Origin: Treponema sp.
Lineage (GTDB): Bacteria; Spirochaetota; Spirochaetia; Treponematales; Breznakiellaceae
Reading direction: 5' to 3'
Length of the DNA stretch: 52,507 nucleotides
Assembly: GCA_009785215.1 (NCBI GenBank)
Contig: WQWU01000010.1
Location: 1 to 52,507, forward strand
Notes under the pieces: model-generated
What the model was told of the DNA's origin: nothing
Databases searched by the model: none
Seen by the model: the letters and a program-made list of their open reading frames with translations, nothing else
Translations under genes and position numbers: made by a program
Shown: piece by piece, positions 34,261 to 39,340 of the stretch
How the letters are laid out: the number at the start of each line of letters is the position of its first letter
Numbering within the stretch: the stretch's first letter is position 1

Positions 34261-35241
34261 TTAACTGGATTCCAGAATAATCCGGTATTTTAAGTATACC
34301 TCTTCCAGGGTATGCAAAGGCCCCGGGGCGTTTACTCTCTTTCGTAAAGTACAGGCATCACGCCTCTCGATAAAAAAGTCATAAATTGCCCTTGGATCAT
34401 GATCATTAAACATGGAATAAACAGGTTTTGAATCCAGATACGAACGCACTTCTTCATGTCCGACAGTCGTTATTCCATATCGTTTTAATCTGCTTCGAAT
34501 CTGAAGGATCTCTTCATAAGACAGTCCAAAAAGGAATTCTTCAAGCGCCCATCTTGTTTTATCATTGGTGGATTCCTCTTTTAGAAAATCCTCCCATTCG
34601 GTTTCACTGTCCATATCAAACGAAATACGCAATAATTCTGTATTTCCGTCCATAGTTCCAAAACTTGGCGGCGCAGAATCTCTGGCAGCCCATAATGAAG
34701 AAAGCGCCATCAAATGGCGGATACTGCGCTGATCTACACCGCTGTCCCAAAGAGCAATTAGGTCATTTGCAAGCTTGGCTTTTGTATTACTGGAAAAGCC
34801 GGGATCTTCAAGGCACGAAAAATATACATTCTCTGCCATTAAGGTAAAAACAACAGAAAAGGAAATTTCCTTTGCAGGAGTGTATAAACCGGTATTTTCT
34901 TTTGTTAATTTGGAAAGCAGGGAAAAAGCATGGAATTTTGCCACCAAAAAGCTGCGAAGAGCTGCAACTTTAGCAGGAATCCGCAGAAGATGAGATGCAG
35001 TAGAGAAAAAGAGCAGCGATTCAGTAAGCTGATTTTCGTTAAGCAGAATATCCCTTACAAACTTTGTATCTTTTATGGAAGGATAATCAAAAACTGCATT
35101 CCCAAGATTTCGCAGCCGCCGAAACCTTTCGCTTACAAGAATAAAATCTCCGTTATTTTTTTCTTTTAGCCAATTTTCACATTTTTCAACAAGGATTTCT
35201 TCGTCTTTTGATAAAACTTGCGCTGAATGCATATTAACCAT
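34261..35241 (-). CDS. Unknown helical cytoplasmic protein
   Basis: 326 residues with no signal peptide or membrane helix. Predominantly alpha-helical, with motifs such as LLRIPAKVAALRSFLVAKFHA, NDLIALWDSGVDQRSIRHLMALSSLW and DHDPRAIYDFFIERRDA. I do not recognise the family. Two ATG codons lie at 35241 and 35232; neither has a ribosome site, and a TTGATG-N17-GATAAT promoter ends eight bases before the first. It is transcribed separately from the dCMP deaminase (convergent) and from the phosphate operon, whose last stop codon overlaps its -35 box. Confidence 0.7.
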   Translation of the reverse strand: MVNMHSAQVLSKDEEILVEKCENWLKEKNNGDFILVSERFRRLRNLGNAVFDYPSIKDTKFVRDILLNENQLTESLLFFSTASHLLRIPAKVAALRSFLVAKFHAFSLLSKLTKENTGLYTPAKEISFSVVFTLMAENVYFSCLEDPGFSSNTKAKLANDLIALWDSGVDQRSIRHLMALSSLWAARDSAPPSFGTMDGNTELLRISFDMDSETEWEDFLKEESTNDKTRWALEEFLFGLSYEEILQIRSRLKRYGITTVGHEEVRSYLDSKPVYSMFNDHDPRAIYDFFIERRDACTLRKRVNAPGPLHTLEEVYLKYRIILESS

Positions 35242-35249
35242 ATTAGTAT

Positions 35250-35278
35250 ATTATCGTACAGAATATCCAATTCATCAA
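35250..35278 (-). promoter_or_regulatory. Predicted promoter of the unknown gene at 34261-35241
   Basis: Minus strand TTGATG (35278-35273), 17 bases, GATAAT (35255-35250), then eight bases to the ATG at 35241. Spacing leaves a leader of two bases or fewer, as in the gntR unit. The -35 box overlaps the stop codon of the degenerate PstB. Confidence 0.5.
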
Positions 35279-36030
35279 CCGAATCTGCCGGTTATATAAT
35301 CACTTGTTCTTTTATCTTTTGGGGTCATAAAAACTTCGGCTTTTGAACCTTCTTCGATAAGGTTTCCCATAAGCATAAAAACAGCTCTGTCGCATACACG
35401 TCCTGCCTGCTGAACATTGTGCGGGGCAATGATAATCGTATATTGTTTTTTTAACTCAATAAGGGATTCTTCAATTTTTGCAGTTGATATAGGATCAAGA
35501 CCGGAACATGCCCTGTCTAAAAGAATTATTTCAGGTTCAAGCGCCAGAACACGCGCAATACAAAGGCGCTGCTGCTGTCCTCCCGAAAGGCTCATCCCCG
35601 AAATTGAAAGCCTGTCTTTAACTTCGTTCCAAAGCGCGGCTCTTTGCAGGGATCTTTCTACTATCTCTGCGAGTTCTTTTTTGCTTTTTCTGCCGCTTAA
35701 ACGGGGCCCGTAACAAATATTATCAAAAATAGAAACAGGAAGAGGAGTGGGAACTTCAAAAACCATACCAACCTTATTGCGAAGTTCGGTAACATTAACA
35801 TCCTGATCATAAATGTTTTTTCCATCAAGAAGAATCTCGCCGTTCATCCATGCGCCTGCATTCAAATCACATAACCTGTTAAACGAACGCAAAAGGGTCG
35901 TTACTCCGCTGTTTGCAGGGCCAAAAATTGCTGTTATTTCATTTGCCTTTATTTTCATATTTAAATTGTGAATAACCTGTTTTTTATCGTAATAAAAATT
36001 AACGTTATTTACAGTAATTTTTGATTCCAA
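35275..36030 (-). CDS. PstB-like ATPase with dead Walker A and Walker B but intact signature motif
   Basis: 251 residues, PstB-like over its whole length, including the PKDKRTSDYITGRFG tail. Walker A reads GPANSGVTT (37-45): the ATP-binding Lys is Val43. The Q-loop Gln is Glu92 (GMVFEVP). Walker B reads IILLDRACSGLDP: the catalytic Glu is Arg173. In contrast the signature LSGGQQQR (148-155) is perfect and the H-loop His204 is kept. It should not hydrolyse ATP at its own site, but can complete the site of the partner PstB encoded at 38558-39340, whose lesions are the opposite. It is the last gene of the pst operon, 17 bases after pstA. Confidence 0.9.
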   Translation of the reverse strand: MESKITVNNVNFYYDKKQVIHNLNMKIKANEITAIFGPANSGVTTLLRSFNRLCDLNAGAWMNGEILLDGKNIYDQDVNVTELRNKVGMVFEVPTPLPVSIFDNICYGPRLSGRKSKKELAEIVERSLQRAALWNEVKDRLSISGMSLSGGQQQRLCIARVLALEPEIILLDRACSGLDPISTAKIEESLIELKKQYTIIIAPHNVQQAGRVCDRAVFMLMGNLIEEGSKAEVFMTPKDKRTSDYITGRFG

Positions 36031-36047
36031 TCCAATACCTCTTTACC

Positions 36048-36899
36048 CTATCTCTTGACAGATTTTGCAATAAATCTGTTAACCATTGCATTTGCAACAA
36101 CATTTATAAGTAAAATCATAATAATTAAAAGAGTTGCAGTACCATAGGCATTTTCCATGGAAATACCTTCTCTAGCCAATATATAAAAATGAACTGCCAT
36201 GGAACGCGTAGAAGAAAAAACCGATGACGGCATTCTAAAAGCGGAACCTGCAGTAAGAATAACTGCAGCAGTTTCTGCAACACAGCGCCCAACACTTAAA
36301 ATAATTCCATTTACAATGCCAAGCAATGCAGAAGGAAATACTACCCTGCTGATTGTCTGCCATTTTGTAGCGCCTAACGAAAAACTGACTTCCCTGTAAA
36401 TATTCGGAACTGCGCGAATCGCTTCCTCCGATGTACGTATTACAGTAGGCAGAATCATAAATGCAAGGGTCAATCCGCCCGCAAGAATAGACCAGCCCAA
36501 TTGCAGATATATAACAAAAAAAATAAAACCAAAAAGCCCGTACACAATAGACGGTATTCCTGCAAGAGATTCTGCGCTAAAGCGGATAATACGGGTTACT
36601 ATATTTTCTTTTGTATATTCAGCCAGATAAAAAGCAGTTCCAATGCCAAACGGAACAACAATTGCAATAGCCAGCGCTGTCAGCAGAAATGTACCAACAA
36701 TCATGGAAGAAATACCGCCGGCACGCCCCATACTGCGCGGAACTTCTGTAAGGAACTGTAAATTAATTACAGGCAGCCCTTTTGCAACAATATAAATAAT
36801 AATGAACAATAAAAGCCCTATCACAAACAGCGCTGCTGACCAAATTATTATTTTTGCTATTTTCTCCGAAAGAGCCGCTGTCATTTTCATTTTCTTCAT
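36048..36899 (-). CDS. pstA: Phosphate ABC transporter permease PstA
   Basis: 283 residues, six membrane segments. The PstA/PstC-type core is visible: GGISSMIVGTFLLTALAIAIVVPFGIGTAFYLAEYT near 62-97, ESLAGIPSIVYGLFGFIFFV near 109-128, and the EAA-type loop IRAVPNIYREVSFSLGATKWQT near 160-182. It forms the inner-membrane channel with PstC. Its start overlaps the pstC stop by four bases. Confidence 0.95.
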   Translation of the reverse strand: MKKMKMTAALSEKIAKIIIWSAALFVIGLLLFIIIYIVAKGLPVINLQFLTEVPRSMGRAGGISSMIVGTFLLTALAIAIVVPFGIGTAFYLAEYTKENIVTRIIRFSAESLAGIPSIVYGLFGFIFFVIYLQLGWSILAGGLTLAFMILPTVIRTSEEAIRAVPNIYREVSFSLGATKWQTISRVVFPSALLGIVNGIILSVGRCVAETAAVILTAGSAFRMPSSVFSSTRSMAVHFYILAREGISMENAYGTATLLIIMILLINVVANAMVNRFIAKSVKR

Positions 36900-37741
36900 T
36901 TTCTCCGCGTAATAAATTGTGCCAATGAATTCAGCAGCATAATTGCAACAAACAGAACAATACCTGTAGCAAAAAGAGCCTGTTGATGTTCTCCCGATGC
37001 ATATCCCATTTCTATACCGATATTTGTTGTAAGAGTCCTGACAGGATCCAATATTGACTGAGGTACTGCAACAGCATTACCCAAAACCATTATTACTGCC
37101 ATTGTCTCGCCGATAGCACGTCCTATTCCAAGAATAACCGCCGCTACAATTCCGGATTTTGCAGCAGGCAGAATTACAGAATAAATTGTCTGCCAATGCG
37201 TTAATCCCAAAGCAAGGGCGCCTTCTTTATATTGACGAGGAAGCGCAAGAATGGAAACTTCTGTTATACTTATTACAGTAGGCAGAATCATAATCCCAAG
37301 AATTAATGAACCTGTCAGAATGCTTAACCCCGGCCCTCCCAAATAATTGCGCACTGCAGGTACAATAAACAAAAGACCCCAAAATCCATAAACAACAGAA
37401 GGAATACCGGCAAGCAATTGTATCGCAGGCCTGAATATACTGCTCATCAGCGGAGGAGCATATTCTGCAAGAAAAACGGCGCAGCATATTCCTATAGGCA
37501 CTCCAACAATTGCCGCTCCAATCGTGACAGTAACAGAACCAATTATCATCGGGAAAATTCCAAATAACCCTCTGCTCGGCGCCCATTCCATTCCAAAAAT
37601 AAAATTGATTATCCCAACCTCTGCAATAACTGTTGCACCCTGAAAAATAATAAAAACAGTAATTAATGCCAATGCAGATATTGATGAAAGAGCAAGCGCG
37701 AAAAATGTATATTTTGATACCAGTTCTTTAAATTTATTCAT
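36896..37741 (-). CDS. pstC: Phosphate ABC transporter permease PstC
   Basis: 281 residues, six membrane segments. Hallmarks: WAPSRGLFGIFPMIIGSVTVTIGAAIVGVPIGI near 53-85, QLLAGIPSVVYGFWGLLF near 107-124, and the EAA-type loop ILALPRQYKEGALALGLTHWQT near 164-185. It pairs with PstA, with which it shares a four-base gene overlap. It starts 18 bases after the pstS stop. Confidence 0.95.
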   Translation of the reverse strand: MNKFKELVSKYTFFALALSSISALALITVFIIFQGATVIAEVGIINFIFGMEWAPSRGLFGIFPMIIGSVTVTIGAAIVGVPIGICCAVFLAEYAPPLMSSIFRPAIQLLAGIPSVVYGFWGLLFIVPAVRNYLGGPGLSILTGSLILGIMILPTVISITEVSILALPRQYKEGALALGLTHWQTIYSVILPAAKSGIVAAVILGIGRAIGETMAVIMVLGNAVAVPQSILDPVRTLTTNIGIEMGYASGEHQQALFATGIVLFVAIMLLNSLAQFITRRK

Positions 37742-37759
37742 TTTGTTCCATATATCATT

Positions 37760-38557
37760 TTAAGGGATAAGCCCCTCTTGTGTCATTAGCTCTTTTCCGC
37801 TTGGAGAAAGAATAAATTCGATAAATTCCATTGCCATGCCAGTTGGCGGAATTTCTTTTGATACAAACAAAAACGGCCTAAAAAGACTGTAACTGCCGTT
37901 TCTTACATTTTCCGATGAAGCTTCAACGCCATCAAGTTTTATAGCTTTTACCGTATTATCTACAAGACCAAGAGATATAAAACCTATTGAATTGGGATCT
38001 CCTGCAACAAGCTGTCTTACAGCGCCGTTTGAATCCTGTATTATGGCTCTTGGAGTAATTCTATTATCGCCCATGACCATATCTTCAAATGCGCTTCGGG
38101 TTCCTGATCCTTCTTCACGTGCAATTATATGTATCCTTGCCTGACGTCCGCCAATCTCGCTCCAGTCTCTTATTTCTGCTGTATATATACTTCTTACCTG
38201 TTCCAGTGTTAAATCAATCACAGGATTCCGCGGATTAACAATCATTGCAAGTCCATCTCTAGCTATCTCGATAGACCAAAGATCTTCTTCTGTTCTTTTT
38301 AACCAGCGGGATGACATTCCAATATCTGCAGTACCGGTCTCGGCTGCTGTGATACCTGCAGAAGAGCCGCCTCCCTGAATATCAATTTTTCTATCCGGAA
38401 ACAAGAATTCAAATTCTTCTGCCAAAAGCTCAACATACGGCTGCACCGAAGTAGAACCGGCAACGATGACACATACGCCCGATCTGCCTGCGCAGGAAAC
38501 AACTGCCATTAGTATCAATATAATAAATAAATATTTACTTGTTTTTACATTAATCAT
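37760..38557 (-). CDS. pstS: Phosphate-binding lipoprotein PstS
   Basis: 265 residues. Signal peptide with lipobox ending VVSC (Cys22), so it is membrane-anchored. The phosphate-binding loops are recognisable: AGSTSVQP near 33-40, GGGSSAGITAAETGTADIGMSSR near 62-84, and REEGSGTRSAFED near 147-159. It delivers phosphate to PstC/PstA. The ATG directly follows the TAA of the upstream pstB (TAA-ATG), so the two are translationally coupled. Confidence 0.95.
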   Translation of the reverse strand: MINVKTSKYLFIILILMAVVSCAGRSGVCVIVAGSTSVQPYVELLAEEFEFLFPDRKIDIQGGGSSAGITAAETGTADIGMSSRWLKRTEEDLWSIEIARDGLAMIVNPRNPVIDLTLEQVRSIYTAEIRDWSEIGGRQARIHIIAREEGSGTRSAFEDMVMGDNRITPRAIIQDSNGAVRQLVAGDPNSIGFISLGLVDNTVKAIKLDGVEASSENVRNGSYSLFRPFLFVSKEIPPTGMAMEFIEFILSPSGKELMTQEGLIP

Positions 38558-39340
38558 TTAACCAAACCTGCCGGAAATATAATCTTCTGTGCGTTTATCT
38601 TTTGGAGATAAAAACATCTGTTTTGTAGCGCCGTATTCAACCAGCCTTCCTACTTTGTCATCTCCGTCTCCTATCATTAAAAATGCGGACATTGTTGATA
38701 CCCTAAGCGCCTGTTCCATATTGTGCGTCACAATTATGATTGTATATTTTTTCATCAGGTTTAACATTAGTTCTTCAATTTTCATGGTCGATTCCGGATC
38801 GAGGGCGCTGCACGATTCATCCATCAGAATTACATCGGGTTCAACTGCAATGGCGCGGGCTATGCATAACCTTTGCTGCTCTCCAGGCTGAAGTTCAAGT
38901 GCTGGTTTTTTTAAGTTGTCTTTTACCTCGTTCCAAAGCGCTGCTTGAATCAAACTGTTCTCTACTATTTCTTCTATTTGGTATTTATCTTTTATTCCAT
39001 GTTTTCTTGGACCAATGGCAATATTATCGTAAATGCTCATTGGAAACACATTAGGTCTCTGAAAAACCATGCCTATTTTTTGTCTAAGATAAACAACATC
39101 TGAAGTTTTATCGTAGATAGAAAAATTATCTAAATAAACACCGCCTTCTACCCTGACTTTTGGTATTAAATCGTTCATACGGTTAAAAACACGCAAAAGT
39201 GTGGATTTTCCGCAGCCCGAGGGGCCGATTATTGCTGTTATACTGCGTTCATAGATATCCATGGTAATATCGCCCAACGCGTGATAAGTATCATAATAGA
39301 GGTTTAACGCTTCTGTTTTTATCTTAACGCTATTATCCAC
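38558..39340 (-). CDS. pstB: Phosphate ABC transporter ATPase PstB with intact catalytic site but degenerate signature motif
   Basis: 260 residues, first gene of the operon rather than the last as is usual. Walker [10 protein letters not shown] (39-47), Q-loop Gln94, Walker B ILMDE with catalytic Glu175 and H-loop His206 are all intact. The signature, LSGGQ in ordinary PstB, reads LQPGE (150-154), so it should not contact ATP bound to a partner. A homodimer would therefore have two incomplete sites; combined with the PstB-like protein at 35275-36030, one complete and one doubly dead site results. The start is GTG at 39340 with GGGAG six bases upstream. No phoU gene is in the window. Confidence 0.93.

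What the first reader, a model, noticed from the sequence alone, without database searches (positions are those of the whole stretch)
35275..39340. Two PstB ATPases with complementary lesions predict an asymmetric phosphate importer
Seen: the PstB at 38558-39340 keeps Walker A, Q-loop, catalytic Glu175 and His206 but its signature LSGGQ is LQPGE. The PstB-like protein at 35275-36030 has a perfect LSGGQQQR signature but Val43 for the Walker A Lys, Glu92 for the Q-loop Gln and Arg173 for the catalytic Glu. Known: in ABC dimers each ATP site pairs the Walker motifs of one subunit with the signature of the other; asymmetric heterodimers are established for exporters such as TAP1/2 and TM287/288, while PstB is normally described as a homodimer. 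Inference: only the heterodimer makes one complete site, the other being dead on both faces, and each homodimer would be inactive. The genes lie at opposite ends of one operon (B-S-C-A-B'), which suggests ordered, one-to-one assembly.
Basis: partly seen in the sequence, partly recalled or inferred. Interest (0 to 1): 0.82.

Follow-up and report, generated by a model that had tools for sequence, protein, structure and literature searches.

The report
Phosphate importer with one working ATPase
Gut-type spirochaetes and some unrelated bacteria carry a phosphate importer whose two ATP-burning subunits are broken in opposite, matching ways, so that only the mixed pair should make one working ATP site; it looks like a distinct, scattered one-engine version of a common nutrient pump.

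Summary
In the operon PstB(Y)-PstS-PstC-PstA-PstB(X), X has an intact LSGGQ but lacks the Walker A Lys, Q-loop Gln and catalytic Glu; Y keeps these but has a degenerate signature. All 8 same-genus genomes with the operon (of 36 searched) keep order and complementarity. One public-genome scan (best 80 loci) plus fetched relatives add 31 paired loci (Clostridia-type, Coriobacteriales, Omnitrophota, Planctomycetes, other Spirochaetota): 39 of 39 pairs are complementary, and none of 206 distinct PstBs has both kinds of lesion. X is one clade even with motif columns removed (100/97). A second form (S-C-A-X-Y) has other lesions: Gln to Ala and switch His to Asn in X; LSLEQ or LPLYQ in Y. Both subunits are under purifying selection.

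Best reading: an obligate X-Y heterodimer with one consensus and one dead ATP site. Assembly and ATPase activity are untested. In three genomes X occurs with only an intact PstB, so X's lesions look primary. Gene order varies, so 'ordered assembly' is unsupported. Degenerate-site importers (RbsA, NupO) are in print; my paper searches showed no asymmetric PstB pair.

The parts
38558..39340 (-). PstB-Y: ATPase subunit with intact Walker A, Q-loop, Walker B Glu and His switch but degenerate signature
   Evidence: ORF; TIGR00972 367.6 bits over cut-off 343.2; motif alignment; AlphaFold pLDDT 93.9, pTM 0.91
38870..38893 (-). Y degenerate signature LQPGEQQR (residues 150-157)
   Evidence: not LSGGQ in any of the 39 rows of the two Y clades
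39203..39226 (-). Y intact Walker A GPSGCGKS (residues 39-46)
38816..38818 (-). Y catalytic Glu175 codon, intact
38723..38725 (-). Y switch His206 codon, intact
37760..38557 (-). PstS phosphate-binding subunit (putative lipoprotein, by eye)
   Evidence: TIGR02136 231.7 bits over 206.6; aligns with E. coli PstS, keeping R-x-x-GSGT; its GSTSV aligns with E. coli GATFP
36896..37741 (-). PstC permease
   Evidence: TIGR02138 291.2 bits over 196.45
36048..36899 (-). PstA permease
   Evidence: TIGR00974 276 bits over 193.45; clade with type-I, type-IIb and L099 PstA, 100/100
35275..36030 (-). PstB-X: pseudo-ATPase subunit with intact signature and degenerate Walker A, Q-loop and Walker B
   Evidence: ORF; TIGR00972 343.8 bits, just over cut-off 343.2; AlphaFold pLDDT 94.0, pTM 0.91; best PDB matches E. 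coli PstB 9k3s_C and 9k3x_C, TMq 0.92 and 0.95
35902..35904 (-). X Val43 codon in place of the Walker A Lys
   Evidence: V, I or T in 30 of 31 rows of the type-I clade, Lys in L099
35755..35757 (-). X Glu92 codon in place of the Q-loop Gln
   Evidence: E or D in 31 of 31 rows of the type-I clade including L099
35512..35514 (-). X Arg173 codon in place of the catalytic Glu
   Evidence: Arg in 30 of 31 rows of the type-I clade, Glu in L099
35566..35589 (-). X intact signature LSGGQQQR (residues 148-155)
   Evidence: LSGGQ in 49 of 49 rows of the X clade

Best explanation
The operon encodes an asymmetric Pst phosphate importer. PstS delivers phosphate to a PstC-PstA channel driven by an obligate PstB-X/PstB-Y heterodimer. 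Shown by sequence: in that dimer one composite site joins Y's intact Walker A, Q-loop, catalytic Glu and His switch to X's intact LSGGQ; the other joins X's dead Walker side to Y's degenerate signature. Inferred: only the first site hydrolyses ATP, so one ATP is split per closure, and the X-Walker/Y-signature face is a structural or regulatory hinge. Inferred order of evolution: X lost catalytic residues first, after which the Y signature facing it was free to decay. In type II operons X keeps the Lys and Glu (loses Gln and His), so its dead site may still hold ATP as in asymmetric exporters; in type I, as in this window, Lys, Gln and Glu are all replaced, so the dead site is probably nucleotide-free.
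For: Lesions present at the stated residues. 8 of 8 same-genus operons conserve order and complementarity. 39 of 39 pairs complementary; 206 distinct PstBs: 114 intact, 48 X, 44 Y, 0 both (the classes are defined by the motifs, so the informative zero is 'both'). X and Y orthologues co-occur in exactly the same 8 of 36 genus genomes and type-I X and Y in the same 3 of 392 phylum genomes, with a wide score gap to the next hits. X is one clade with motif columns removed: 97 SH-aLRT with 159 rows, 100/97 with 86 rows; all 49 X-clade rows keep LSGGQ. Replacement residues are fixed, not drifting: Arg for Glu in 30 of 31 rows of the type-I clade, Asn for His in 18 of 18 rows of the type-II clade. 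Median dN/dS about 0.07 for X and Y, 0.04 for canonical PstB. X and Y fold confidently; X matches E. coli PstB. All five genes pass Pst family cut-offs. A PhoU gene follows X in L077 and L080.
Against: No physical or biochemical data. Three genomes (L096-L098) have a type-I X but no degenerate Y was found; the only other PstB found there is intact, and L097 and L098 show a whole S-C-A-X operon without Y, so Y's signature loss is not required and X can probably use another partner. The L091 and L099 genomes gave no Y, though both contigs end upstream. The window genome also has two canonical pst operons (C9, C6), so X or Y might mix with canonical PstB. Type-I Y keeps LxxG, so some Y-homodimer activity is possible. 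dS near 1.7 makes dN/dS rough. Single origin of Y is neither shown nor rejected (best tree needs two changes; AU p 0.298).
Confidence: 0.77

Rival explanations
1. X is the obligate asymmetric partner of any intact PstB: in the cell it pairs with housekeeping PstB as well as, or instead of, Y. Y's signature loss is a neutral consequence of sitting opposite a dead Walker site.
For: L096-L098 genomes have type-I X and, of PstBs found, otherwise only an intact one; L097/L098 operons lack Y. The window genome has two intact PstBs.
Against: In 39 of 39 paired operons the PstB paired with X is a degenerate-signature Y; if intact PstB were the usual partner, Y need not be kept with X under purifying selection.
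Confidence: 0.1
2. Y works alone as a slow homodimer (its signature keeps the second Gly), and X is a regulatory pseudo-ATPase that is not an NBD of the pump.
For: Type-I Y signatures are LxxG, milder than the type-II LSLEQ/LPLYQ.
Against: X keeps LSGGQ in 49 of 49 clade rows, which is pointless unless it faces a working Walker site; type-II Y has lost the second Gly too (LSLEQ, LPLYQ, LSGEQ), so a Y homodimer is implausible there.
Confidence: 0.06
3. The transporter has become a phosphate sensor or a phosphate-gated regulator rather than an importer.
For: The host also has two canonical pst operons with PhoU, so uptake may be covered; the window operon has no PhoU beside it.
Against: One complete ATP site is retained; PstS, PstC and PstA pass their family cut-offs; two clostridial versions carry PhoU right after X.
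Confidence: 0.05
4. X or Y is decaying, or the motifs are assembly errors.
For: The window genome is an incomplete MAG-like assembly (74.7% complete, 54 contigs).
Against: Same replacements in 8 of 8 related genomes and similar ones in distant phyla; median dN/dS about 0.07; open reading frames.
Confidence: 0.01

Closest known systems
PstSCAB phosphate importer (E. coli; PDB 9k3s, 9k3x, seen as search rows only)
   Same: All five gene products pass the Pst family cut-offs; X matches E. coli PstB in fold, and X and Y in sequence
   Different: E. coli PstB is one protein, two chains per entry in the PDB rows, with intact motifs in the chain aligned; here two proteins with complementary lesions
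Tandem PstB1/PstB2 of Firmicutes (E. faecalis, PMC12096839, abstract and passages seen; B. subtilis PstBA/PstBB listed as the two NBDs of one model, PMC11466899, passages seen)
   Same: Two PstB genes in one pst locus; in E. faecalis with non-equivalent functions
   Different: In E. [quoted passage not shown] no degenerate site
Asymmetric exporters with a degenerate site (TAP = ABCB2/B3, TM287/288, Pdr5; review PMC7756269, passages seen)
   Same: One consensus and one degenerate composite site, lesions spread over both NBDs; in Pdr5 all four motifs of the degenerate site deviate
   Different: Exporters of another fold class; ATP is described as staying bound in the degenerate site, whereas type-I X has lost Lys, Gln and Glu (that most exporters keep the Lys is recalled)
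RbsA and NupO fused-NBD importers (PMC11466899, passages seen)
   Same: Importers with one degenerate site: second Walker A lacks Lys and a signature deviates from LSGGQ
   Different: Two NBDs fused in one polypeptide, ribose and guanosine uptake; here two separate PstB subunits of a phosphate importer

Membership tests
PstB / PstSCAB phosphate importer | PstB subunit scores over the family cut-off (TIGR00972) | tested here: met
   X 343.8 (just over), Y 367.6, cut-off 343.2
PstB / PstSCAB phosphate importer | PstS, PstC and PstA in the same operon | tested here: met
PstB / PstSCAB phosphate importer | each PstB has all ATPase motifs intact | tested here: not met
   X lacks Lys, Gln, Glu; Y lacks LSGGQ
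PstB / PstSCAB phosphate importer | phosphate is the transported substrate | not testable with these tools
   only PstS family score and aligned residues
Heterodimeric ABC transporter with one degenerate site | one composite site intact, the other degenerate, by sequence | tested here: met
   39 of 39 pairs
Heterodimeric ABC transporter with one degenerate site | the two NBDs physically form the heterodimer | not testable with these tools
   only monomers could be modelled
Heterodimeric ABC transporter with one degenerate site | asymmetry conserved among relatives | tested here: met
   exceptions without Y: L096-L098
Firmicutes tandem PstB1/PstB2 | both PstBs with intact motifs | tested here: not met
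   comparison from passages of PMC12096839
RbsA-type fused-NBD importer | two NBDs in one polypeptide | tested here: not met
   X and Y are separate ORFs of 251 and 260 aa

The most novel reading that the evidence does not exclude
In the type-I clade the Q-loop Gln is always Glu or Asp (31 of 31 rows) and the catalytic Glu is Arg (30 of 31, all but L099), two positions that in ABC structures flank the gamma-phosphate (recalled). The dead site may be closed by a built-in acid-Arg salt bridge in place of Mg-ATP, giving a nucleotide-free protein hinge, or the Arg may bind cytosolic phosphate and brake import. Type II (Lys and Glu kept, His to Asn) would be the ATP-holding stage and L099 (Lys and Glu kept, Gln to Asp) a stage between, so a path from symmetric to ATP-holding to nucleotide-free asymmetric pump could be read off living relatives.
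Probability: 0.2. Interest if true: 0.85.

Novelty: new variant of a known kind. Interest (0 to 1): 0.64.

Why it matters
[quoted passage not shown] Here is an importer in which a normally symmetric PstB has become asymmetric, in two lesion styles, with an intermediate, X-only relatives and intact relatives as natural controls. That makes the one-ATP-per-cycle and nucleotide-free-site ideas directly testable by mixing subunits. It also warns that some proteins that pass the PstB family cut-off are pseudo-ATPases.

Tried and rejected
Rejected: sequencing error or decay (fixed replacements, dN/dS about 0.07). Rejected: spirochaete-only curiosity. Rejected: gene position at operon ends as a sign of ordered assembly (type II genes are adjacent). 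Left open: one or two origins of Y. The best trees need two changes, with two Dehalococcoidia PstBs with intact signatures next to type-I Y, but the AU test does not reject one clade (p 0.298). A first PstA/PstC tree wrongly labelled L085 and L086 as canonical; corrected. Promoter and terminator scans gave no more than shuffles. A heterodimer could not be modelled (monomers only) and model coordinates were not in the Python box, so the Glu92-Arg173 distance was not measured. Composition gave nothing: operon GC 0.397, window 0.400. No Pfam family at E 0.001 for the ORF after X.

Rows left out: the tree used 158 of 233 aligned PstB rows plus E. coli PstB (repeat fetches and most of the canonical rows of L009-L056 and L157-L184 dropped); that used 86 of these 159, chosen by me. 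In the phylum sample only 6 genomes with tandem hits (plus three other stretches) were opened, and G109 and G267, which also had two hits, were not, so the number of type-IIb genomes is a lower bound.

Paper searches for an asymmetric PstB pair: PstB, heterodimer, degenerate, ABC transporter; PstB, heterodimer, phosphate transporter; PstB1, PstB2, Walker. No listing or passage that I saw described one; the library holds open-licence PMC papers only, and most listed papers were seen as listing alone.
Full report
Observation. The window is one whole contig (G000:C10) of an incomplete genome (74.7% complete). On the minus strand five genes lie head to tail: PstB-Y 39340-38558, PstS 38557-37760, PstC 37741-36896, PstA 36899-36048, PstB-X 36030-35275. 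All five products pass the NCBIfam cut-offs for Pst components; X passes TIGR00972 by only 0.6 bits. X reads GPANSGVTT, MVFEVP, LSGGQQQR, LLDRACSGLDP; Y reads [39 protein letters not shown].

Same genus. Orthologues of X (71% identity or more) occur in 8 of the 36 genomes of the genus searched, orthologues of Y (69% or more) in the same 8, and neither at such identity in 23 genomes of the wider order (many are incomplete MAG-like assemblies, so absences are soft). All 8 have the order Y-S-C-A-X (for the window, for the other 7). In all 8, X has Val (4) or Ile (4) for the Walker Lys, Glu (7) or Asp (1) for the Q-loop Gln, Arg for the catalytic Glu and an intact LSGGQQQR; Y has every Walker-side residue and a degenerate signature (LQPGE, LTAGE in four, LSPGQ, LSPGE, LAMGQ). 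The 12 canonical PstBs aligned beside them are intact. In none of the 7 others did the fetched stretch hold, at E 1e-15, any of the seven window neighbour genes used as queries, apart from the pst genes; five stretches had at least 1.3 kb upstream and 4 kb downstream, the two short contigs (L060, L061) little flank. So the operon seems to sit in different places. On the X tree G021 falls among Oscillospiraceae and Coriobacteriales sequences (87 SH-aLRT), apart from the other seven, which group with two Clostridiales MAGs (97): horizontal transfer, probably more than once, is the simplest account, but binning error in single MAGs is not excluded.

Beyond the genus. Of these, 35 of 80 hold an X-type PstB and 45 only intact PstBs. 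Type I (22 loci, L077-L098): mostly MAGs titled Oscillospiraceae, Clostridiales or Bacillota, plus a Coriobacteriales, a Paenibacillaceae, an Erysipelotrichaceae, a Hungatella, an uncultured bacterium and the strain Lacrimispora amygdalina PI-S10-A1B; where both genes are on the locus (13) the order is Y-S-C-A-X. Type IIa (12 loci titled Omnitrophica/Omnitrophota, Planctomycetes or Phycisphaerales, WOR-1, Acidobacteria): S-C-A-X-Y as far as the contigs reach (L100 and L143 are cut upstream), with X = GP[AS]NSGK, Gln to Ala, Glu kept, switch His to Asn, and Y = LSLEQ, LSIEQ or LSGEQ. Type IIb (6 loci, L185-L190, other families of the same phylum): same replacements in X, Y = LPLYQ or LPLYH. L099 is between: X with Lys and Glu kept and Gln to Asp. 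Summed over everything aligned: 263 rows, 206 distinct PstBs, 114 intact, 48 X, 44 Y, none with both kinds of lesion; 39 of 39 X-Y pairs on one locus (8 + 13 + 12 + 6) are complementary (Y of L187 is cut before its His, which was not counted as a lesion; L106, L107, L118, L141 and L189 also hold a further, intact PstB outside the pair).

Exceptions. Ten of the 35 scan loci show X but no Y. In five genomes (L082, L089, L090, L092, L094) a degenerate-signature Y lies on another contig. L091 and L099 are undecided: no Y was found, but the contig ends upstream. L096-L098 are exceptions: besides X only an intact PstB was found, and L097 and L098 show a complete S-C-A-X operon without Y; the L096 contig begins at X. 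I read this as X being able to pair with an intact PstB, and as the Walker-side loss in X coming before signature loss in Y.

Phylogeny and selection. With the motif columns left out, X is one clade (97 SH-aLRT with 159 rows; 100/97 with 86 rows), and all 49 of its rows keep LSGGQ and carry a Walker-side or switch replacement. Type-I Y (100/97) and type-II Y (98/94) are each one clade; the tree places two intact Dehalococcoidia PstBs next to type-I Y, so the signature may have been lost twice, but the AU test does not reject one Y clade (p 0.298). PstA of type I, type IIb and L099 is one clade (100/100); PstC gives the grouping of type I with IIb only weakly (72/18); type IIa is a clade apart in both. 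Median pairwise dN/dS in the genus is 0.068 (X, 23 of 28 pairs usable), 0.072 (Y, 24 of 28) and 0.042 (canonical, 18 of 21), with dS near 1.7, so rough but clearly purifying. In a 392-genome sample of the phylum, type-I X and Y occur in the same 3 genomes, far above the next hits (1e-147 against 1e-100 for X; 1e-155 against 1e-111 for Y). In a 299-genome sample of the family of Lacrimispora, type-I X occurs in 2, one of them Lacrimispora itself.

Structure and context. AlphaFold monomers are confident (X pLDDT 94.0, Y 93.9). X's best PDB matches are E. coli PstB chains (TMq 0.92 and 0.95). The window's contig has no PhoU; both canonical pst operons of the same genome have one right after PstB, and in L077 and L080 a PhoU-family gene follows X.

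Mechanism. Shown by sequence: only the X-Y pairing gives one complete composite site, and the other site is damaged on both faces. Inferred: obligate heterodimer, hydrolysis at one site, the other serving as a hinge. Type II X retains Lys and Glu and may still hold ATP, like degenerate sites of exporters (PMC7756269, passages). Type I X has lost Lys, Gln and Glu and probably holds none. The Arg opposite an acidic Q-loop residue suggests a salt bridge, which I could not measure.

Known relatives. Degenerate-site importers are in print: RbsA and NupO (PMC11466899, passages). Tandem PstBs are known in Firmicutes, with intact motifs in E. faecalis, and that paper says that no study of the relative contributions of tandem pstB paralogues had been published (PMC12096839, abstract and passages). 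E. coli Dpp has two different NBDs, and a figure legend says that they were aligned with consensus and degenerate sites (PMC12136057, a legend and a reference-list passage seen). My paper searches showed no description of a complementary PstB pair. So: a new variant (a Pst importer with a pseudo-ATPase half) of a known kind (ABC transporter with one degenerate site).

Noticed in passing
G000:C9:40.9-45.3 kb and G000:C6:32.2-36.5 kb (L064, L065): The window's genome also has two canonical pst operons (S, C, A, B), each followed by PhoU: three phosphate importers in a 1.9-Mb incomplete genome.
   Followed up: partly
L063 (G021:C9) 4.8-13.9 kb: In one relative the asymmetric operon and a canonical pst operon lie side by side, converging.
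   Followed up: no
L097 and L098, 3.4-6.75 kb: Complete S-C-A-X operons with a dead-Walker X and no Y; the only other PstB found in each genome is intact.
   Followed up: partly
L100, L105-L108, L111, L115, L118, L131, L141, L143, L150; L185-L190: Second form of the asymmetric pair (adjacent genes, His switch to Asn, Gln to Ala; Y LSLEQ/LSGEQ/LPLYQ), in Omnitrophota, Planctomycetes and others, and in other Spirochaetota families.
   Followed up: yes
L071 (G020:C26) 4.5-5.2 kb: The canonical PstB of this genome matches in two overlapping pieces, as if frameshifted or misassembled, while its asymmetric operon is open where the contig holds it.
   Followed up: no
window 34261-35241 (-): A 326-aa ORF starts 33 bp after PstB-X on the same strand; no match to it near the other operons and no Pfam family.
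   Followed up: partly
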